Of a stretch of 64,000 bases of DNA, positions 31,080-41,053 are shown piece by piece. Each line of letters starts with the position of its first letter. Positions within the stretch are counted from its first letter, which is position 1. Below the pieces are notes generated by a model. That model was not told where the DNA came from. It did no database searches and saw only the letters and a list, made by a program, of their open reading frames with translations. Both the position numbers and the translations under genes were made by a program. This stretch comes from Cellulosimicrobium cellulans (GTDB lineage: Bacteria; Actinomycetota; Actinomycetes; Actinomycetales; Cellulomonadaceae): the NCBI RefSeq assembly GCF_024124905.1, contig NZ_JAMXST010000004.1, positions 186,001 through 250,000 of the forward strand, written 5' to 3'.

Positions 31080-32954
31080 GTGGCTCACCTTCTCGGCGCC
31101 GACGGCATCTCGCTGACCGTCGGCACCCGCACCCTGCTCGACGACGTCTCGCTCGGCCTCGACGACGGCGACCGCGTCGGCATCGTCGGCCCCAACGGCG
31201 CCGGCAAGTCCACGCTCCTGCGCCTGCTCGCGGGCACGCAGCAGCCCGACGGCGGCCGGGTCACCCGGGTGGGCGGGCTGCGGGTGGGCCTGCTCGACCA
31301 GCGCGACGACGTCGGCACCGGCGCGACGATCCGCGACCTCGTGCACGGCGACGCCGCGACGCACGCCTGGGCGTCGGACGCGAGCGTCCGCACCGTCCAC
31401 GCGGGGCTGCTGGCCGACCTCGACCTCGACGCTCCCGCGGACACGCTGTCGGGCGGGCAGCGGCGCCGCGTCGCGCTCGCGGCCCTCCTCGTCGCCGACC
31501 ACGACGTGCTGTTCCTCGACGAGCCCACGAACCACCTCGACGTCGAGGGCGTCGCGTGGCTCGCCGCGCACCTGGGCGACCGGTTCGCGCGCCCGGGCGC
31601 GAAGGGCGCGCTCGTCGTGGTGACCCACGACCGCTGGTTCCTCGACGCCGTCTGCTCGCGCATGTGGGAGGTGCGTGGCGACGGCTCCGGCGCGGTGGAG
31701 GGCTACGAGGGCGGGTACGCCGCCTACGTGCTCGCGCGCGCCGAGCGCCAGCGCACCGCCGCCGTCGCGGCGGAGAAGCGCGACAACCTGCTGCGCAAGG
31801 AGCTCGCGTGGCTGCGTCGCGGTGCGCCCGCGCGCACGTCGAAGCCCAAGTTCCGCCTCGACGCGGCCGCGGCGCTCATCGCCGACGTGCCGCCCCCGCG
31901 CGACACGCTCGAGCTCACGCGCACCGCGACCAAGCGGCTCGGCAAGGACGTGCTCGACCTGGAGGACGTCACCGTCGCGGTCCCGCGGCGAGGGGCGGCT
32001 GGTGAGGACGCGGGCGAGCGCGTGCTGCTCGACGACGTCACGTGGCGCCTCGGGCCCGGCGACCGGTACGGCGTCGTCGGGGTCAACGGCGCGGGCAAGA
32101 CGACGCTCCTCGCCCTGCTCGCCGGACGGCGCGAGCCCGACGCGGGACGCGTCAAGCGCGGCAAGACGGTCCACGTCGCCGAGCTGTCCCAGGACGTCGG
32201 CGAGCTCGACGACATCGCCGGGTCCCGCGTGATCCAGGTGATCGAGGACGAGAAGCGGTCGGTCGTCGTGGACGGCAAGGAGCTCACGGCGTCCCAGCTC
32301 GTCGAGCGGCTCGGGTTCACGCGCGAGCGGTCGCAGACCCTCGTGCGCGACCTCTCGGGCGGCGAGCGCCGCCGCCTCCAGCTCCTGCGACTGCTCGTCG
32401 CCGAGCCCAACGTGCTCCTGCTCGACGAGCCGACGAACGACCTCGACACCGACACGCTCGCCGCGCTCGAGGACCTGCTCGACGGCTGGCCCGGCACGCT
32501 GATCGTCGTCTCGCACGACCGCTACCTGCTGGAGCGCGTCGCGGACCGCCAGGTCGCGCTGCTCGGGGACGGCAAGGTGCGGGACCTGCCGGGCGGCGTC
32601 GAGCAGTACCTCGAGCTGCGGCGCGCGGCGCTCGCGGGGGCGGGAGCGTCGTCGAGCGGCTTCGCGCCCGCGGCGGGCGCCGGGGCCGACGGCGGCGCGG
32701 ACGGCGCGCAGGACGCGCCCGACCTGGCCGGTCCGAGCGCCGCCGAGGTCCGGGCCGCGAAGAAGGAGATCAACCGCATCGAGCGGAGGCTGTCGAAGAT
32801 CGCCGAGGCCGAGGGCCGCCTGCACGAGAAGATCGCCGCGAACGCGACGGACTTCACCGCGGTCGCGGAGCTCGACGCCGAGCTGCGCGCGCTCGCGGCC
32901 GAGAAGGACGAGCTGGAGGCGGCCTGGCTCGAGGCGGCGGAGGTCGCGGGCTGA
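31080..32954 (+). CDS. ABC-F family ATPase (ribosome-associated)
   Basis: 624 residues with two ABC domains and no membrane segment. First domain: Walker A GPNGAGKST near residue 39, signature LSGGQRRR, Walker B DVLFLDEPTNHLD. Second: VNGAGKTT, signature LSGGERRR, LLLDEPTNDLD, with the conserved switch His in VVSHDRY. The linker between them (about 215-300) is basic and helical, as in Uup. The C-terminus (about 560-620) is a coiled coil beginning at EVRAAKKEINRIERRLSKI, also Uup-like. ABC-F proteins act at the ribosome E site and rescue stalled or antibiotic-bound ribosomes. Uup type is more likely than antibiotic-resistance type because of the C-terminal coil. Confidence 0.88.
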   Translation: MAHLLGADGISLTVGTRTLLDDVSLGLDDGDRVGIVGPNGAGKSTLLRLLAGTQQPDGGRVTRVGGLRVGLLDQRDDVGTGATIRDLVHGDAATHAWASDASVRTVHAGLLADLDLDAPADTLSGGQRRRVALAALLVADHDVLFLDEPTNHLDVEGVAWLAAHLGDRFARPGAKGALVVVTHDRWFLDAVCSRMWEVRGDGSGAVEGYEGGYAAYVLARAERQRTAAVAAEKRDNLLRKELAWLRRGAPARTSKPKFRLDAAAALIADVPPPRDTLELTRTATKRLGKDVLDLEDVTVAVPRRGAAGEDAGERVLLDDVTWRLGPGDRYGVVGVNGAGKTTLLALLAGRREPDAGRVKRGKTVHVAELSQDVGELDDIAGSRVIQVIEDEKRSVVVDGKELTASQLVERLGFTRERSQTLVRDLSGGERRRLQLLRLLVAEPNVLLLDEPTNDLDTDTLAALEDLLDGWPGTLIVVSHDRYLLERVADRQVALLGDGKVRDLPGGVEQYLELRRAALAGAGASSSGFAPAAGAGADGGADGAQDAPDLAGPSAAEVRAAKKEINRIERRLSKIAEAEGRLHEKIAANATDFTAVAELDAELRALAAEKDELEAAWLEAAEVAG

Positions 32955-34288: not shown

Positions 34289-35308
34289 TCAGCCGCGTGC
34301 CTTCTCCACCGCAGCCCGCGCCGTCTCGCGCTCGGCATTCTCCGCCTCGCGCAGCGCCTTCTCGAGCTCGCGCACCTTCTTCTGCGCCTCGCGGACGCGG
34401 CGCTCGGCGTCGCGCCGCTTGAGCGTCGCCTTCTTCACCTTCGGGTCCTTGACGTGCACGGCCATCTCGACCGGGGCGACGGCGTCGCGCGGGTCGGTCC
34501 CCGCGGCCTCCGCCGGGGCCGGCGGGTCGTCGGACGCCGGGGCGCGGCGCCCCGCGCCCGGGGCTCCGGCCGCGCGGGCGTCCACGTAGACCGCGATCCC
34601 GTCGAGCACGCGCTCGAGGCCCCACGCGGTGTCGTCGATCGCGCCCTCCTCGGCGTACGTCCCCGCCTCCACGAGGGGGCGCAGGTAGGGGAAGCGCACC
34701 TCGTCGACGAGGTCGCGCAACGCGCCGCCCCAGCCGCCACCCAGGACGGTCTCGTCGGCCCCGGCCTCGGTGACCGCGCGGGCCAGGTCCGACTGCAGTC
34801 GGGCGGCGTTCCGCGCGTAGCCGCTCACGAGCAGGATGACCGACATCTTCTCCTCGTCGTCGAGCGGCGTGGAGCGCAGGGCGCGCAGGGCGCTGTCGGC
34901 CCCGCGCAGGTTGTTCGGCGTGAGCGGCGCGCCGGTCACCGGGATGTCGAGGAACCACGGGTGGGACGCGAACACCGCCATGGTGAACTGCGCCCACTCG
35001 CGCAGCTCCGCGCGCCAGTCCGCGGGCTCGTGCGCGGGCGGGTACTCGACGTCGAGCGCCGCCTCCTGCATGAGCAGCAGCAGGTCGTCCTTGCTCGTCA
35101 CGTACCGGTAGAGCGACATCGTCGTGAAGCCGAGGCTCTGCGCGACCTTCGCCATGGAGACCGCGCCGAGCCCGTCGGCGTCCGCGATCTCGATGGCGGT
35201 GTCGACGATCCGCTCGATGCTCAGCTCGCGCTTGGGCGTGCGCTCGGGCCGTTCGGCGACGCCCCACGCGAGCGCGAGCCGGGGCGGGAGGTCGGGTGCG
35301 TCCGTCAT
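34289..35308 (-). CDS. TetR-family regulator with C-terminal coiled-coil tail
   Basis: 339 residues, long for TetR (about 200). HTH at about residues 28-75 (ELSIERIVDTAIEIADADGLG, MAKVAQSLGFTTMSLYRYV). The ligand domain is of the TetR_C1 class (YLRPLVEAGTYAEEGAIDDTAW, FERVLDGIAVYV-like end). From about residue 250 a Pro/Ala linker leads to a strongly charged helix (about 285-339) with heptads such as RVREAQKKVRELEKAL, predicted to form a coiled coil. The tail may dimerise further or bind a partner. It lies downstream of the DrrAB-type exporter on the same strand and probably regulates it. A hairpin separates them. Confidence 0.85.
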   Translation of the reverse strand: MTDAPDLPPRLALAWGVAERPERTPKRELSIERIVDTAIEIADADGLGAVSMAKVAQSLGFTTMSLYRYVTSKDDLLLLMQEAALDVEYPPAHEPADWRAELREWAQFTMAVFASHPWFLDIPVTGAPLTPNNLRGADSALRALRSTPLDDEEKMSVILLVSGYARNAARLQSDLARAVTEAGADETVLGGGWGGALRDLVDEVRFPYLRPLVEAGTYAEEGAIDDTAWGLERVLDGIAVYVDARAAGAPGAGRRAPASDDPPAPAEAAGTDPRDAVAPVEMAVHVKDPKVKKATLKRRDAERRVREAQKKVRELEKALREAENAERETARAAVEKARG

Positions 35309-35326
35309 GGGTTCATCCTCCCCCGA

Positions 35327-35389
35327 CCGGTGCCGAACCAGTGCGTACCGGTGGCCGACCAGGCCGTCCCGGTGCCGCGAGCAGGTGGT
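35327..35389. repeat. 21-bp-period repeat array D (three units)
   Basis: Units at 35327-35347, 35348-35368 and 35369-35389 each begin CCGGTG, and the last runs into the hairpin at 35378-35434. On the minus strand the units carry CTGGTCGGC-like text that resembles part of the repeats at 37.4 and 39.5-39.8 kb. No gene is supported here. Confidence 0.5.
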
Positions 35390-35434
35390 CCTGGCTCGTC
35401 CGGGTCGGCTGGACGTGCCAGGACCACCTGCTCG
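35378..35434 (-). terminator. Hairpin terminator after the DrrAB-type operon
   Basis: Perfect 18-bp stem, CGAGCAGGTGGTCCTGGC with its complement at 35417-35434. The 21-base loop can form a further CGTCC/GGACG stem. It lies 10 bases beyond the permease stop. Confidence 0.8.
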
Positions 35435-35444
35435 GCGGAGGGGG

Positions 35445-36272
35445 TCAGCGGGCCGTTCGGCGGCGGTAGAGGACGGAGCCGGCGGCGCAGCTCACGACCA
35501 GGAAGCCCACGAGCCACGCTACGGCCGTGAGGACCGTCGTCGCGTCGGGCGACCCCGCGAGGAGGCCGCGGAAGGTCTCGATGATCGGCGTGAACGGCTG
35601 GTTCTCGGCGAAGCCGTGCAGCCACGAGGGCATCGTGTCGATCTCGACGAAGCCCGAGCTGAGGTAGGGCACGAACAGGAACAGGAAGTTCACCGACTGC
35701 GACGCCTCGACGCTCAGCACCAGCCCGAGCGCGACGCTCAGCCACGTGAACGTGAGCACCGCGAGCACGGCGAACGCGACGAGGCCCAGCCAGTCGCCGA
35801 GCCCGGCGTCGGGCCGGAAGCCCAGCGCGAGCGCGACGGCCACGACGACGACCGCGGACGCGAGGTTGCGCGCCACGCTCGCCACGACGTGCCCCCACAG
35901 CGCGGACGGTCCGAAGATCGGCAGCGTCTTGAACCGGTCGATCGTGCCCGAGGTCATGTCCTGCGCGACCCCCACGGCGGCCGTCGCCGAGCCGAACCCG
36001 AGGCACATGACGAGCACGCCCGGGACGACGTAGTCGATGTAGTCGTCCCCACCGATCGCGCCGCCGAAGATGACGACGAAGACCAGCATGATCATCACGG
36101 GCAGCACGAACGCGGTGATGAGGCCGTCGACGCTGCGGAGCTGGCGGCGCGTCTCGCGCGCGACCATCGTCCGCACGTCGCGCGCGGCGGTCGCGGGTGT
36201 CTGCCGGGCGCGTGCGGCGGTGCGCGGCGGGCGCGCGGGCGACGTCGCGAGCGTGGGCGTGGTGGCGCTCAT
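35445..36272 (-). CDS. ABC-2 type exporter permease (DrrB-like)
   Basis: 275 residues with six membrane helices. A basic, Ala-rich N-terminus of about 40 residues is followed by helices from LITAFVLPVMIMLVFVVIFGG on. The ABC-2 signature region reads VPGVLVMCLGFGSATAAVGVAQDMTSGTIDRFKTLPI. FLFLFVPYLSSGFVEIDTMP and ENQPFTPIIETFRGLL are typical of the daunorubicin-resistance DrrB group. Its ATG overlaps the ATPase stop by 4 bases. It should export a hydrophobic drug or lipid-like molecule. Confidence 0.88.
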   Translation of the reverse strand: MSATTPTLATSPARPPRTAARARQTPATAARDVRTMVARETRRQLRSVDGLITAFVLPVMIMLVFVVIFGGAIGGDDYIDYVVPGVLVMCLGFGSATAAVGVAQDMTSGTIDRFKTLPIFGPSALWGHVVASVARNLASAVVVVAVALALGFRPDAGLGDWLGLVAFAVLAVLTFTWLSVALGLVLSVEASQSVNFLFLFVPYLSSGFVEIDTMPSWLHGFAENQPFTPIIETFRGLLAGSPDATTVLTAVAWLVGFLVVSCAAGSVLYRRRTAR

Positions 36273-37216
36273 CGGGCGCCCTCCTTCCGGGTCAGAGCGA
36301 GGAAGACGTCGTCGAGCGTGGGCTTGACGACGCTGACCCCGACGACGGCGAGGTCGTGGGAGTCGGCTGCGGCGAGGACGTCGCGGATCGTGCGGACGGG
36401 CTCGTCGCTCGGCGCGGTGAGCGACAGGTCCTTGTCGTCCGTGGTCGGGCGGGCGAGCCCCAGCGTCGGCGCGAGCCCGACGGCGGCCGCGAGGCTCGCG
36501 GGGTCGTCGAACGCGACCCGGACGTGGTCGCCGGCGACGAGGGCCTTGAGCTCGGCGGCCGTGCCGCGCGCGGCGACGCGGCCGTCGTGCAGGACGGCGA
36601 TCGTGTCGGCGAGGCGGTCGGCCTCCTCCAGGTACTGGGTCGTGAGCAGGACCGTCGTGCCGTCGGCCGCCAGGCCGCGCACCACGTCCCAGAGCTGGGC
36701 GCGCGAGGCGGGGTCGAGCCCCGTCGTCGGCTCGTCCAGGACGAGGACGGCCGGGTCGGCGACGAGGCTGATCGCGAGGTCGAGGCGGCGCCGCATGCCG
36801 CCCGAGTACGTCCCGACGCGGCGGTCGGCGGCGTCGGCGAGGTCGAAGCGGGCGAGGAGCTCGTCCGCGCGTCGACGCACCGAGCGCCGGGGCAGGTGGG
36901 CGAGCTCGCCCATCATCACGAGGTTCTCGCGGCCCGTCTGGAACTCGTCCACCGACGCGTACTGGCCCGTGAGCGCGATGGTCTCGCGCACGCGCGCCGC
37001 GTCGTGCACGACGTCGGCCCCCGCGACGCGGGCCGTGCCGCCGTCGGGGCGGACGAGGGTCGTGAGGATGTTGACGGTCGTGGTCTTGCCGGCGCCGTTG
37101 GGCCCGAGCAGCGCGAAGATCTCGCCGCGGCGCACGGTCAGGTCGACGCCGCGCAGCACGGCGTGGTCGCCGTAGGACTTCTCGAGCCCCTGCACGGCGA
37201 TCATCGGTTCGGTCAT
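36269..37216 (-). CDS. ABC exporter ATPase (DrrA-like)
   Basis: 315 residues; ATG chosen with AGAAGGAGAAGG immediately upstream, where a longer frame exists. Walker A GPNGAGKTT near residue 40, Q-loop LTGQYASVDE, signature YSGGMRRRLD, Walker B VLVLDEPTTGLD, and a C-terminal domain with VVKPTLDDVFLALT, all DrrA family landmarks. It powers the adjacent DrrB-like permease. A pair of direct repeats at 37269-37301, 53 bases upstream, is the probable operator. Confidence 0.9.
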   Translation of the reverse strand: MTEPMIAVQGLEKSYGDHAVLRGVDLTVRRGEIFALLGPNGAGKTTTVNILTTLVRPDGGTARVAGADVVHDAARVRETIALTGQYASVDEFQTGRENLVMMGELAHLPRRSVRRRADELLARFDLADAADRRVGTYSGGMRRRLDLAISLVADPAVLVLDEPTTGLDPASRAQLWDVVRGLAADGTTVLLTTQYLEEADRLADTIAVLHDGRVAARGTAAELKALVAGDHVRVAFDDPASLAAAVGLAPTLGLARPTTDDKDLSLTAPSDEPVRTIRDVLAAADSHDLAVVGVSVVKPTLDDVFLALTRKEGAR

Positions 37217-37268
37217 CGCCTTCTCCTTCTCGGTCGGACGTGCTGGCCGGTGTGCGGCGCACACGGGC

Positions 37269-37301
37269 GTGTATGGCATAAACGATGTGTACACCATAAA
37301 C
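37269..37301. promoter_or_regulatory. Two direct-repeat operators of the DrrAB-type exporter
   Basis: GTGTATGGCATAAAC (37269-37283) and GTGTACACCATAAAC (37287-37301) agree at 12 of 15 bases, with starts 18 bases apart. Each is a loose palindrome GTnTAnnnnnTAnAC, a TetR-type site. The A+T content is far above the surroundings. The regulator at 34289 is the best candidate to bind here. Confidence 0.65.
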
Positions 37302-37348
37302 ACGCCTCGACGCGCGGGTCAAGGGCGGGGTGCCCGCCGAGGGGGCGG

Positions 37349-37432
37349 GGCACGAGGGAGAACCCTGGTCGCGCGAGGTAGACCCGTGGTAGCGCGAGGT
37401 GGAGCCGTGGTCTCCCGAGGTAGAGCGGTGGC
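37349..37432. repeat. 21-bp-period repeat array C (four units)
   Basis: Units at 37349, 37370, 37391 and 37412 have the consensus cGCGAGGTAGAGCCGTGGt; the first is degenerate. The array ends 2 bases from the MFS stop codon. It has the same orientation as array A, 2.1 kb away. Confidence 0.75.
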
Positions 37433-37434
37433 GG

Positions 37435-38808
37435 CTACCTCGCGTGAGAGCGGGGGGATCCCGTGAGGGCGAGTCCGATCCCCGTCATGAGCACGAGCGC
37501 GCCGAGCACGACGGCGACCGGCGTCGTCCACGTTCCGGTCGCCGTGTGCAGGGCCCCGGCCAGGGTCGGGGCGACCGCCGCGAGGCAGTAGCCCACCGAC
37601 TGCACCGTCGCCGAGGCCTGACGTCCCCGGCGGACGGTCGGGAAGCGTTGCGCGACGAGCGTGAAGATGACCACGAAGTTCGCCGCCTGTGCGATCCCGG
37701 CCATCGACGCCCACACCGCCCACAGGTCCGGCGCGACGAGCAGACCGACCGGCAGCGTCAGCCACAGCACCGCGATCACGGCGAAGCTCTGACGCAGCGA
37801 CCATCGCCGCACCGCGAGCGGCACGGCGAGCCCGCCGACGATCGCGAACCCCTGGAACAGCGACGCCGCCCCGCCCGACGCCGCGCGGGGGATCCCCGCC
37901 AGGTCCTCCAGGATGAGCGGCAGCCACGCCGTGAGCGCGTAGAAGCTCGACGACTGGAGCGCGAACATCGCGCACAGCCACCACGTGAACGGCGTCGCGA
38001 GGACGTGGCGCTCGCGGGCGGCGGCGGGGTCGGTGCCCGTGACGCCCTCCGCGGCCGCGGAGGCGAGCCTGCCCGGGTCGGGGGAGGCGCCGTCGTCCCC
38101 ACCACCCGCGTCGTGCGGTGCGGGCCGCTCTCCGGGGTCGGGTGCCGTCGTGCCCGACGCCGGCCGGCTCGCCGGGGTGGTCGTCGCCCGCCCGGGCCTG
38201 CTCGGTTCGCGCGGGACCGCGCGCAGCCACCACGCGAGCGCGACGACCGCGAGGACGGACCAGGACGCGAGCGCCCAGCGCCACCCGACGGCGTCGGCCA
38301 GGGGCGCGGTGAGCGCGGTCGTCGCGACGGTCCCCACGTTGATCACCGCCGTGTACAGGCCCGTCACCGTCGCGACGTGCCCGGGGAAGTCGCGCTGCGC
38401 GATCATCGGGACGGCGAGGTTCGCCGTCGTGATGCCGAGCCCCAGGAGCACCGTCCCGGCGAACGTCCCGGCGGTGCCGAGGCCAGCCGTGCCGAGGGCG
38501 GAGAGGTCCGCCGAGCGCAGGAGCGTCCCGGCGAGGATCAGCCCGAGCGCGACCGCGATCGCGGTGCGCAGCGACGACCGCCCCAGCAGCCCCGCGACCG
38601 CTGGCGTCGCCACGGCGAAGCAGAGCACGGGGATGCCCGTGAGCAGTCCCGCGGCCGCCGCGGTGAGGTGCAGGTCCGCCGCGACGTCCGCGACGACCGG
38701 CGGCAGCGCCGTGAGCGGCGCGCGCAGGTTGACCGCGACCAGCAGCACCGCGACGAGCAGCACGCCGTCGATCCCGCCGCGGAACGTGATCGGGCGGGGC
38801 GGCGGCAT
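37435..38808 (-). CDS. CynX/NimT-type MFS transporter
   Basis: 457 residues with twelve predicted membrane helices. The start MPPPRPITFRGG has GGAGG 10 bases upstream. VNLRAPLTALPPVVADVAADL at about residues 25-45 is the hallmark of the cyanate/nitroimidazole (CynX/NimT) MFS family, followed by ALGLGITTANLAVP-like text and TGLYTAVINVGT. The central cytoplasmic loop between helices 6 and 7 is unusually long and rich in Pro, Gly and Asp (about residues 205-260). Substrate is unknown; members export or import small anions and drugs. It lies 62 bases downstream of a MarR gene on the same strand and is probably regulated by it. Confidence 0.85.
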   Translation of the reverse strand: MPPPRPITFRGGIDGVLLVAVLLVAVNLRAPLTALPPVVADVAADLHLTAAAAGLLTGIPVLCFAVATPAVAGLLGRSSLRTAIAVALGLILAGTLLRSADLSALGTAGLGTAGTFAGTVLLGLGITTANLAVPMIAQRDFPGHVATVTGLYTAVINVGTVATTALTAPLADAVGWRWALASWSVLAVVALAWWLRAVPREPSRPGRATTTPASRPASGTTAPDPGERPAPHDAGGGDDGASPDPGRLASAAAEGVTGTDPAAARERHVLATPFTWWLCAMFALQSSSFYALTAWLPLILEDLAGIPRAASGGAASLFQGFAIVGGLAVPLAVRRWSLRQSFAVIAVLWLTLPVGLLVAPDLWAVWASMAGIAQAANFVVIFTLVAQRFPTVRRGRQASATVQSVGYCLAAVAPTLAGALHTATGTWTTPVAVVLGALVLMTGIGLALTGSPRSHAR

Positions 38809-38870
38809 CGGGCGGTGACCTCCGGGTGCGGGCGCGTCGACGCCGCCCGCCCGATCAGCCGGGCCGTCGG

Positions 38871-39371
38871 TCAGTCGTCGAACTGTCCTACGACTGTACG
38901 CAGGAGCGCCGCGAGCGCAGGGCGGCCCCCGGGCTCCAGCGCGTCGAGGATGCGGGCCTCCACCGCGAGCAGGTCGGTCATCGCCGTGTCGACGCGCTCC
39001 AGCCCCTCGGGCGTGAGCTCCACGAGCACGCCGCGCCGGTCGTCGGGGGACCGGCGGCGCACGACGAGCCCGCGCTCCTCGAGCCGGTCGATGCGGTTCG
39101 TCATGGTCCCGCTCGTCACGAGCGTCTGCGTGACCAGCGCCCCGGGCGACAGGCGGTACGGCTCGCCGGCCCGACGCAGCGCCGACAGCACGTCGAACTC
39201 CCACGTCTCCAGGTGCCCCCGCGCGAACGCCGTACGCCGCGCGCGGTCGAGGTGCCGGGCGAGCCGGTCGACGCGCGAGAACACCGTGAGCGGCTCGACG
39301 TCGAGGTCGGGGCGCTCGCGCTGCCACGCCGCGACGATGCGGTCGACCTCGTCCTCGTGCTGCTGCTCCAT
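38871..39371 (-). CDS. MarR-family regulator (autoregulated)
   Basis: 166 residues. I start at ATG 39371: TACCCT lies 6 bases upstream (39378-39383 on the minus strand), the leaderless pattern, and the extra residues of the longer frame would cover the operator. Winged helix at about residues 50-120 (TWEFDVLSALRRAG, GTMTNRIDRLEERGLVVRRR, then the wing SPDDRRGVLVELTPEG). The N-terminal helix reads DRIVAAWQRERPDLD, common in the group that controls MFS exporters. Its likely operator is the palindrome at 39393-39406. Confidence 0.88.
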   Translation of the reverse strand: MEQQHEDEVDRIVAAWQRERPDLDVEPLTVFSRVDRLARHLDRARRTAFARGHLETWEFDVLSALRRAGEPYRLSPGALVTQTLVTSGTMTNRIDRLEERGLVVRRRSPDDRRGVLVELTPEGLERVDTAMTDLLAVEARILDALEPGGRPALAALLRTVVGQFDD

Positions 39372-39392
39372 GACGCGAGGGTACTCGATGTG

Positions 39393-39406
39393 TCTCGACA
39401 TCAAGA
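39393..39406. promoter_or_regulatory. MarR operator at the MFS operon promoter
   Basis: TCTCGACATCAAGA is a palindrome of TCTYGA halves around CA. It overlaps the expected -35 region (TTGATG on the minus strand), so binding would block RNA polymerase. TCTTGA-type sites are common for actinobacterial MarR proteins. Confidence 0.7.
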
Positions 39407-39450
39407 CTCTTGACGGCCCGCCTGTCGTTACCGCACGCCGTCGGAGAACC

Positions 39451-39534
39451 GGCGTCGCGAGGTAGAGCCCTGGTCGCGCGAGGTAGAGCCGTGGTCGCGC
39501 GAGGTAGAGCCCTGGTCGACCGAAGCAGAACCGC
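39451..39534. repeat. 21-bp-period repeat array A (four units)
   Basis: Units at 39451, 39472, 39493 and 39514. The second and third differ at one base (ggtcgcgcgaggtagagcc followed by gt or ct), and the fourth is degenerate. The same motif in reverse orientation forms array B at 39753-39837. No promoter or gene is supported inside it. Confidence 0.8.
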
Positions 39535-39625
39535 GGTTGCCGGCCGCGTCGCGGACCGTCGTCGCGAACCTGTCACCGCGGGCAGCTGCCCGGGTGAGCG
39601 ACGACCAGGGTGAGACGACGTCGGG

Positions 39626-39719
39626 CGGGGTGGGTGGTGGTGCCGCGTCGTGGTCGGGCCTGGCGGGAGCCGCGAGGAACGAGCGGCGGATGGTAGACGC
39701 GGCACCACCACCCACCCCG
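39626..39719. repeat. Perfect 24-bp inverted repeat between arrays A and B
   Basis: Bases 39626-39649 are the exact reverse complement of 39696-39719 (the arm begins CGGGGTGGGTGGTGG), with a 46-base loop. It lies at the centre of the gap 39407-39844, with the two 21-bp arrays outside it in mirror orientation. The 438-base gap otherwise holds no gene that I can support. Confidence 0.85.
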
Positions 39720-39752
39720 ACCACCCAACGCGACCACACGCCGTCGGGCATG

Positions 39753-39837
39753 GCCACGGCTCTACCCCGCGCGACCACGGCTCTACCTCGGCCGACCAGG
39801 GCTCTACCTCGGCCGACCACGGTTCTACCTCGCGTGG
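39753..39837. repeat. 21-bp-period repeat array B (four units, inverted)
   Basis: Read on the minus strand, the units are cgcgaggtagaaccgtggt, then two copies starting cggccgaggtagagcc, then a cgcgcggggtagagcc unit. The array stops 7 bases short of the ABC-2 permease stop codon. Confidence 0.8.
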
Positions 39838-39844
39838 CCCCGGG

Positions 39845-41053
39845 TCAGGTGGTGCGGAGGGCGTCCTTGAGCCGGACGCGGGCGCCGGTGCGCAGCACCG
39901 CGTTGGAGTAGATCTTCGCGGCGAGCCACACGAGCACGGGGACGACGGCGAGCGAGAGGCCGAGCGCGAGGAGCGCCTCCCAGGTCTCGGCGCTGCCGAG
40001 CGCGATGCGCACGGGCATGAGGAGCGGCGAGCACAGCGGGACGAACGACAGCCACACGACGAGCGGGTTGTCCGGGGCCCAGGGCGCGACGGAGATGCCC
40101 ACGACGTACGGCACGATCATGAGGAACGTGACGGGGGTCGTGACGGCGCCGACGTCCTCCTGGCGCGAGACGAGCGCGCCGAGGCCGGCCATGAGGAGCG
40201 CGTAGCTCACGAACCCGACGACGAACCACACGAGCGCCCAGACGGCCGCGGTGCCGAGGTCGATCGTCGACGTGTCGACGAGGCCGAGGCCGAGCGCGGT
40301 CCCGACGCCCGCGAGCACGACGAGCGCGACCTGCCCCAGCCCCACCAGGCCGATCCCGAGCACCTTGCCCGCCATGAGCTGCCAGGGCCGGACGGTCGAG
40401 AGCAGGAGCTCGACGACGCGGCTCGTCTTCTCCTCGACGACGCCCTGCGCGATGAGCTGGCCGCTGATCATGATGGCCATGAAGAGCAGGATCCCGGTGA
40501 CGAGGCCGGTGACGTAGCGGGTCGGGTCGAACTCGCTGGGTTCGCCGATCGTGCGGACGGTCGGCTCGGCGGTCGCGATGTCGCCCGCGACCTGGGCGGG
40601 GTCGCCGCCGAGGCTCGCGACGGCGTCGGACAGCGCGGTCTGCTGGGCGAGGGTCGTGAAGACGGCCGTGAGGCCGGGGGAGAGCTCGGTGTCCACGACG
40701 ACGGTGGGCGCGTCGGCGGAGCCGGTGACGAGGGCGTCGAGGTCGCCGTCGCGCACCTGGGCCTCGCCCGCGGCGTCGTCGGCGACGTCGACGGTCTCGA
40801 CCTCGGTGCCGAGCGTGCCGCCCGTGGCCTCGATCGACTCCGCGAGCGCGGCGGTCTGCGGCGTGACGCCGACGCGCTCGGCGGTCGGGCCGGACGAGCT
40901 CGCGGCGTTGAGCACGAGCCCGCCGAGCACGACCGCGCCGACGAGGATCACGGTGAGCCAGACGAACGACTTCGAGCGGAGCCGCGTCATGATCTCGCGG
41001 CTCGCGACGAGGCGGATCGCGCCCCAGGACGTCAACGAGGTCCCCGTGCTCAT
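39845..41053 (-). CDS. ABC-2 type exporter permease (NatB-like)
   Basis: 402 residues. One N-terminal helix (SFVWLTVILVGAVVLGGLVL, about 30-50), an external domain of about 150 residues, then five further helices from YVTGLVTGILLFMAIMISGQ on. The segment IAQGVVEEKTSRVVELLLSTVRPWQLMAGKVLGIG is the ABC-2/NatB signature. The family includes sodium exporters and antibiotic exporters; sodium is not demonstrated here. ATGA overlap with the ATPase stop. Confidence 0.87.
   Translation of the reverse strand: MSTGTSLTSWGAIRLVASREIMTRLRSKSFVWLTVILVGAVVLGGLVLNAASSSGPTAERVGVTPQTAALAESIEATGGTLGTEVETVDVADDAAGEAQVRDGDLDALVTGSADAPTVVVDTELSPGLTAVFTTLAQQTALSDAVASLGGDPAQVAGDIATAEPTVRTIGEPSEFDPTRYVTGLVTGILLFMAIMISGQLIAQGVVEEKTSRVVELLLSTVRPWQLMAGKVLGIGLVGLGQVALVVLAGVGTALGLGLVDTSTIDLGTAAVWALVWFVVGFVSYALLMAGLGALVSRQEDVGAVTTPVTFLMIVPYVVGISVAPWAPDNPLVVWLSFVPLCSPLLMPVRIALGSAETWEALLALGLSLAVVPVLVWLAAKIYSNAVLRTGARVRLKDALRTT

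What the first reader, a model, noticed from the sequence alone, without database searches (positions are those of the whole stretch)
35327..39837. Family of 21-bp-period intergenic repeat arrays at operon boundaries
Three arrays (37349-37432, 39451-39534, 39753-39837) are built of four 21-bp units of the consensus cGCGAGGTAGAGCCnTGGT, and a fourth looser array (35327-35389) has the same period and shares CTGGTCGGC. Three of them abut the 3' ends of minus-strand exporter genes, within 2 to 60 bases of the stop. The period of 21 is two DNA turns. It is also seven codons, but the units lie outside genes. I know no named element of this form. They could be protein-binding arrays, terminators, or traces of a mobile REP-like element that uses operon ends.
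Basis: seen in the sequence. Interest (0 to 1): 0.7.

Follow-up and report, generated by a model that had tools for sequence, protein, structure and literature searches.

The report
Gene-end repeat arrays with hairpin core
The 21-base repeats are a family, nearly confined to Cellulosimicrobium, that sits as facing pairs just after the ends of genes; many pairs enclose a folded hairpin element that is more widespread than the repeats themselves.

Summary
Three of the four reported arrays belong to one family; the fourth (35327-35389) does not. The window's genome has 277 sites with at most one mismatch, 0 for the reversed control. The unit is nearly confined to Cellulosimicrobium.

Arrays face each other: 27 '+ then -' neighbours, 1 '- then +' and 2 '++' within 1 kb in the own-genome loci. 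They lie just after stop codons and read with the gene at 119 of 137 gene ends; at 30 of those 119 the unit's TAG is the gene's own stop codon. Convergent gene pairs are enriched (18 of 38 regions, odds ratio 5.6).

Most wide pairs examined (21 of 28), including window 39459-39831, enclose a ~98-nt hairpin core at 39623-39721. Its loops are nearly invariant; its stem varies but stays paired (97.2% of cells). The core occurs outside the genus and in frame inside some genes. The window copy has no Rfam match, and no RAYT transposase was found in the genus.

Best reading: a REP/BIME-like 3'-end element of a new variety, probably a two-way 3'-end hairpin. The function is inferred.

The parts
37354..37432 (+). 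array of four 21-bp units
37435..37444 (-). partial facing unit (CGCGAGGTAG on the minus strand), seen by eye; its TAG is the stop codon of the MFS gene 37435-38808
   Evidence: sequence, gene call
39459..39537 (+). left arm: three good units and one degenerate unit
39623..39721 (+). conserved hairpin core: 25-bp stem P1, inner hairpin P2, nearly invariant loops; antisense to the ABC permease gene whose 3' end it faces
   Evidence: the stem was also found mechanically (39626-39719)
39722..39752. short spacer between core and near array; in the loci that have a near array it is 33-37 bp measured from the 92-base core
39753..39831 (-). right arm: array of four units, 14 bp from the stop of the ABC permease gene (39845-41053, minus)
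35378..35434 (.). NOT a member: separate hairpin with 18-bp arms at the 3' end of ABC permease 35445-36272; hairpins of other sequence lie at the same place in some relatives (by eye)
35327..35389 (.).

Best explanation
This is a composite repetitive 3'-end element of Cellulosimicrobium. Tandem arrays of a 21-bp unit sit as two facing arms just downstream of stop codons. The arms are either nearly joined as a palindrome (often a 4-bp centre) or separated by an interior that usually carries a structurally conserved hairpin core, which is more widespread than the unit. Read on either strand, the arms and the core can fold into long hairpins, so the element most likely acts as a two-way transcript end: a terminator without a U-tract, a 3' exonuclease block, or both. 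The arrays grew by local duplication on each arm. The core spread as a palindromic mobile element of unknown enzyme and was then mostly inherited in place. Shown: the family, its facing arrangement, its place and orientation at gene ends, the core and its compensatory changes, presence/absence between species, and in-frame copies in genes. Inferred: the terminator or end-protection role, local duplication as the growth mode, and past mobility.
For: 277 sites in the genome, 0 in the control. Facing arms: 53 '+-', 7 '++', 6 '--', 5 '-+' neighbours in 76 loci; 27 '+-', 2 '++', 1 '-+', 0 '--' within 1 kb in 39 own-genome loci. Enriched between convergent genes: 18 of 38 own-genome regions, odds ratio 5.6, p 3e-5. 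At 119 of 137 gene ends the nearest array reads in the gene's direction (own genome 43 of 50, named loci 76 of 87), mostly within 60 nt of the stop; 30 of the 119 use the unit's TAG as stop. One tight palindrome folds into a nearly continuous hairpin (-89.7 kcal/mol). Core: 97.2% of stem cells paired in 53 different cores, 24 of 25 P1 pairs changed on both sides. Core orientation is biased relative to the gene it follows (34 of 37 intergenic cases). At the MarR-ABC locus the same gene end carries arrays with core, arrays alone, or (by eye) a quite different hairpin in different species, as expected if the shared job is a 3'-end hairpin.
Against: The two arms of one element are no more alike than arms of different elements (tight p 0.33, wide p 0.95), so selection for arm-to-arm pairing is not shown. 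No run of T follows the window's arms. The terminator scan found 3 U-tract-like sites in 37200-39900 (shuffled mean 0.2): two at 37301-37324, outside the arrays, and one at 39532-39548 that overlaps the inner edge of the left arm with a 5-bp stem; none uses an arm-to-arm stem, and the scan cannot see long-loop hairpins. The region 37350-37447 folds only modestly (z -1.9; 8 of 200 shuffles fold as well). Lone arrays exist and cannot form an arm-to-arm hairpin. 18 of 137 gene ends have the nearest array in the opposite direction. 3 of 38 own-genome regions are divergent, and 3 of 72 own-genome arrays fall inside called genes. A terminator does not need invariant loops. No transcript data were available.
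Confidence: 0.6

Rival explanations
1. The 21-bp unit is a DNA site for a protein that binds in phase on one face (two helical turns per unit) between converging genes, for example to handle supercoils, as gyrase is recalled to do on BIME arrays. The hairpins are by-products.
For: Well conserved unit with a looser spacer over 542 units (loci partly chosen by a tandem pattern); spacing 21 in 135 of 140 own-genome steps. Preference for convergent regions. Arms do not co-vary. Lone arrays exist.
Against: The orientation bias relative to the gene and the use of TAG as stop codon are not needed for a DNA site. A constant period also follows from tandem duplication alone. The unit sequence differs in some species at the same places (GAGGTAGTACC type in G120, G124, G125; by eye).
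Confidence: 0.2
2. Purely selfish repeats that survive at gene ends because insertion elsewhere is harmful; they have no function.
For: Exact units per genome range from 0 to 249 in one genus. Elements are present or absent between species. In-frame copies of the core lie in linkers of genes.
Against: Core stems differ by compensatory changes at orthologous sites of different genera (L101/L145, L138/L140/L143; by eye), and the loops stay nearly invariant. Species without the element can carry another hairpin at the same gene end (by eye).
Confidence: 0.3
3. The core is a small RNA gene transcribed towards the 3' end of its neighbour.
For: G-U pairs outnumber A-C mismatches on that strand, 17 to 3 in 46 unique P1 arms.
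Against: The excess is 14 to 0 in the own genus but 3 to 3 outside it (my count from the list). I saw no promoter-like sequence in the flanks by eye. Some cores are coding sequence.
Confidence: 0.1

Closest known systems
REP elements and BIMEs (GTAG- and CGTC-tagged palindromes; PMC3733652, passages seen)
   Same: High-copy, intergenic, at 3' ends (recalled for REPs), paired in opposite orientation, some copies inside genes, target of specific insertion sequences (PMC1525189, abstract seen)
   Different: The single unit is not a palindrome; period-21 tandem arrays; ~98-nt core with nearly invariant loops; no RAYT in 17 of 17 genus genomes. The term search of PMC3733652 found 'Actinobacteria' 0 times in its main text
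Rickettsia palindromic elements (named in PMC3733652, passage seen; in-gene details recalled; listing only)
   Same: Palindromic element found between genes and in frame inside genes
   Different: Different phylum and sequence; the core keeps long conserved loops on a 25-bp stem
Intrinsic two-way terminators (recalled)
   Same: Hairpin-forming sequence soon after stop codons, enriched between convergent genes
   Different: No T-run after the window's arms; conserved unit and conserved loops; a repeated family
MITEs (recalled)
   Same: Small, inverted ends, no coding capacity of their own
   Different: No parent transposase or target duplication was identified here

Membership tests
REP (RAYT-associated) | RAYT / Y1 transposase in genomes that carry the repeat | tested here: not met
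   PF01797: 0 of 17 genus genomes at E 0.001; control found it in 5 of 14 named genomes
REP (RAYT-associated) | single 20-40 bp unit that is itself an imperfect palindrome with a GTAG or CGTC tag at one end | tested here: not met
   GTAG occurs inside the unit, but one unit is not a palindrome; palindromes arise from two facing units. The base of the core stem varies between loci and shows no constant tag (by eye)
REP (RAYT-associated) | high copy number, intergenic, mainly at gene 3' ends | tested here: met
BIME | units in alternating orientation forming mosaics with other motifs | tested here: inconclusive
   Two facing arms and a distinct core make a mosaic, but orientation within each arm is constant
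Rickettsia palindromic element-like | same palindromic element in frame inside unrelated genes, absent from orthologues | tested here: met
   Core only: NHL-repeat gene with it in 3 of 8 genomes read; ABC-F gene with it in 3 of 18 by motif and 2 more degenerate by eye; other genes by eye
MITE | target-site duplication and parent transposon | tested here: inconclusive
   No clean recent empty site was available; G166/G167 seem to keep part of one stem arm and may be deletions (by eye). No search for a parent transposon other than PF01797 was made
Intrinsic terminator | hairpin followed by U-tract | tested here: inconclusive
   No T-run after the window's arms. Scan: 3 sites, one overlapping the inner edge of the left arm, none on an arm-to-arm stem; the scan cannot see long-loop hairpins such as the core
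Intrinsic terminator | transcripts end there | not testable with these tools
   no transcript data
Known structured RNA (Rfam 15) | match to a curated family | tested here: not met
   Window 35200-40000 only: two sub-threshold MIR3454 rows at 35375-35438, nothing on the core; cores of other genomes were not scanned

The most novel reading that the evidence does not exclude
The core is a previously undescribed, old palindromic element of Actinobacteria. It is defined by nearly invariant loops (CUGGCGGGAG, GAGGAACGAG, GGAUGGU) on stems that are free to change but must pair. It lives downstream of stop codons and in frame inside genes, and is maintained by a folded-strand recognition that does not involve RAYT transposases. 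In Cellulosimicrobium it was captured between facing 21-bp arrays that carry stop codons, making a modular 'stop plus two-way end' cassette.
Probability: 0.4. Interest if true: 0.78.

Novelty: new variant of a known kind. Interest (0 to 1): 0.62.

Why it matters
How transcripts end in high-GC Actinobacteria is less clear than in textbook species (recalled). Here is a large repeat family placed exactly at gene ends, with an orientation rule and, at 30 of 119 of the gene ends it faces, a donated stop codon. The core adds a sharply defined folded element with nearly invariant loops that is found in genomes of nine families and whose window copy matches no Rfam 15 family. Both make direct tests possible: do transcripts end there, and what recognises the loops.

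Tried and rejected
Rejected: strand polarity along the chromosome (an early impression, whose listing shows only the first matches of each genome; not pursued, not claimed). RAYT mobilisation. Known RNA family for the window copy. Arm-to-arm co-variation as proof of a selected hairpin (negative). The core as an RNA gene (mixed). Stem P1 made by inverted copying of the target was considered from G172 against G166/G167 and dropped, because a core at the same place is present in G125 of another genus, so deletion in G166/G167 is as likely. A repeat-targeting insertion sequence as the cause of the family: the end pattern searched was found in one of 17 genomes only, so it looks like a user, not the maker.

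Led nowhere: text searches for the unit and the loop as printed letters gave only papers that look unrelated by title. Searches for Actinobacteria REP, for Cellulosimicrobium or Cellulomonas repeats and for structured 3' RNAs (listings and abstract starts only) showed no description of either element. PMC3610266: passages by term search, unrelated. PMC1525189: abstract and outline seen. PMC3733652: passages seen. That nothing is in print rests only on these searches.

Limits. Genome surveys with the RNA model score only the best 10 to 150 candidates per genome and use rough E-values, so copy numbers are lower bounds and absences are not proof. The DNA search counts matches, which include stem arms matching each other, so its 14 to 96 matches per genome overstate copies; its capped list holds 22 full-length copies of at least 96% identity for G000. 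Gene calls come from my own codon-usage script, not an annotation. Background gene pairs come from the same loci. The 61 named loci were fetched with a pattern that itself demands one 21-bp step, so the 380 of 402 is biased; the 135 of 140 is not. The own-genome loci came from the 100 listed of 136 exact sites, so the later contigs and the end of C6 are not covered. Dropped before counting: 15 arrays at locus edges and 4 inside called genes, 3 arrays inside called genes and those without a gene on both sides. Orthologous loci of different species were counted as separate, so the p-values are too small.

Full report
WHAT WAS CHECKED. The window is G000:C5:186001-250000 of a 4.67-Mb genome in 10 contigs. 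Named relatives with the repeat are Cellulosimicrobium: a tandem-unit pattern scanned over the one-genome-per-species collection gave 61 stretches, 60 titled Cellulosimicrobium and one titled Sphaerisporangium cinnabarinum ATCC 31213.

A GENOME-WIDE FAMILY NEARLY CONFINED TO ONE GENUS. With one mismatch allowed the unit has 136 forward and 141 reverse sites in the own genome and none for the reversed control. Of 221 genomes of the family, 21 have an exact match: 15 of the 17 genomes of the own genus (1 to 249 sites each) and 6 others, of which only G173 has more than two (17). The reversed control matches once in each of two genomes, so single matches elsewhere are at chance level. In G120, G124 and G125 arrays of a shifted unit (GAGGTAGTACC type) are seen by eye, so the unit changes between species.

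FACING ARMS. In 76 loci, neighbouring arrays were 53 '+ then -', 7 '++', 6 '--' and 5 '- then +'. The '+-' gap was exactly 4 bp in 17 cases, 5 to 25 bp in 8 and 66 to 785 bp in 28. In 39 own-genome loci, within 1 kb, there were 27 '+-', 2 '++', 1 '-+' and no '--'. Spacing within arrays is 21 in 135 of 140 steps there, and in 380 of 402 steps in the 76 loci, most of which were fetched with a pattern that favours it. Neighbouring units on one arm are more alike (about 1.5 differences) than units of different loci (about 2.05), which fits local duplication. The two arms of one element are not more alike than chance, which speaks against proven arm-to-arm selection.

GENE ENDS. With a codon-usage gene caller written here, 37 of 79 array-bearing intergenic regions in the 76 loci are convergent (Fisher p 4e-10). 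In the own-genome set, 18 of 38 are convergent, 17 tandem and 3 divergent (odds ratio 5.6, p 3e-5). Where an array lies within 150 bp of a stop codon, the nearest one reads in the gene's direction at 43 of 50 own-genome ends and 76 of 87 ends in named loci. At 12 of those 43 and 18 of those 76 the TAG inside the first unit is the gene's stop codon. The MFS gene of the window is counted there among the exceptions, because its nearest full array faces the other way; by eye, its TAG at 37435-37437 belongs to a partial unit that faces properly (gene). Orthologous loci of several species are counted separately, so these p-values are too small.

THE CORE. Of 28 interiors of wide pairs, 21 hold the core loop. 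The 92-base query matches in 17 of 17 genus genomes. The counts (14 to 96) include stem arms matching each other, so they overstate copies; the capped list shows 22 full-length copies of at least 96% identity for G000, and fully identical copies in five genomes. Where a near array exists it lies 33-37 bp from the core. Divergent copies show the plan: stem P1, a long conserved loop strand, inner hairpin P2 with a conserved loop, stem closed. A covariance model finds it in 48 of 221 family genomes, 30 of 396 order genomes and 10 of 394 class genomes, 7 of them in other orders with weak scores (sequences). The last are the least certain. Only the best candidates of each genome were scored.

PLACE AND ORIENTATION OF THE CORE. 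Of 50 loci from other genera and families, 49 had genes called on both sides. The gene on the core's 3' side points at it in 42 of 49, and none of the 49 is divergent. Twelve of the 49 have a reading frame running into the core and may be inside genes. Without them it is 34 of 37 (22 of 25 in tandem pairs, 12 convergent; p 1e-7), typically 10 to 60 nt after the stop. On the antisense strand G-U pairs exceed A-C mismatches 17 to 3 in unique P1 arms, but outside the own genus the count is 3 to 3, so the strand that acts is not settled.

INSIDE GENES. Some cores are coding. An NHL-repeat gene carries one in frame in G125, G169 and G172, with compensatory stem differences by eye, while G166 and G167 lack most of it and G168, G170 and G171 have another linker. 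The ABC-F gene, whose orthologue in the window (31080-32954) has none, carries it in the C-terminal linker of G135, G141 and G147 by motif, and in degenerate form in G137 and G150 by eye, out of 18 genomes of that genus. Further in-frame cases, named from sequence motifs by eye only, are an ATPase with DKTGT (L216), a helicase (L219) and an iron-sulphur oxidoreductase (L218). Frames and orientations differ, so the peptide is unlikely to be what is kept.

VERTICAL HISTORY. At the MarR-ABC locus of the window, 17 genomes were compared. Arrays with core occur in G000, G116, G111, G121 and G123, and core with one arm at a contig end in G115. G119 has arrays without a core. G113, G114 and G117 have short or degenerate arrays. 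G120, G124 and G125 have arrays of shifted unit. G118, G110 and G122 have a different hairpin, and G112 almost nothing (the last three groups by eye). A core lies at the same site in two genera after a dihydroxy-acid dehydratase-like gene (L101/L145) and after a glycogen-branching-like gene (L119/L146; here the stems differ wholly) (gene names by eye). So many elements appear to be inherited in place, with losses.

HOW IT PROBABLY WORKS. A facing pair read on either strand can form a long hairpin (one example, -89.7 kcal/mol), and the core is another. Both lie where a transcript should end, often where two transcripts converge, and different species can put unrelated hairpins at the same gene end. 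I therefore infer a two-way transcript end or end protection. Against it stand the lack of a T-run after the window's arms and of a U-tract site on an arm-to-arm stem (a scan that cannot see long loops), the lack of arm co-variation, the modest fold of 37350-37447, the lone arrays, and the nearly invariant loops, which ask for a recognising factor. A phased DNA-binding array remains a live rival, and so does a selfish repeat without function.

COMPARISON. REP and BIME elements are the nearest kind, but two defining features of RAYT-associated REPs were tested and not met: RAYT association and a palindromic single unit. The in-gene copies recall Rickettsia palindromic elements. I file it as a new variant of a known kind, not as a REP.

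Noticed in passing
L190 2118-3185 (G116) and L301-L305: An insertion sequence, by eye an IS110-like transposase of about 355 aa, sits inside array units at the same point (between GAGGTAGAGC and CCGTGGT) in all five places found in G116; the pattern was not found in the other 16 genomes. The pattern included 7 bases of the unit, so copies elsewhere would be missed.
   Followed up: partly
window 35378-35434: Hairpin with CGAGCAGGTGGTC arms at the 3' end of the ABC permease gene; in relatives the same place has, by eye, hairpins of like or other sequence.
   Followed up: partly
L017, L020, L030, L059 interiors: Interiors of about 600-785 bp carry by eye a further inverted repeat (GCGGTGGGGGTGGGCTCGG and its complement) besides the core, so there may be more hairpin modules in these mosaics.
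   Followed up: no
G111, G115, G248 contig ends: Several contigs begin or end at or inside a core, so the repeats may break assemblies.
   Followed up: no
G173 (genus g16): One genome outside the genus has 17 exact units; not examined for arrangement.
   Followed up: no
L086 7456-7532: A single outward-facing pair (- then +, 3-bp gap), against the rule.
   Followed up: no
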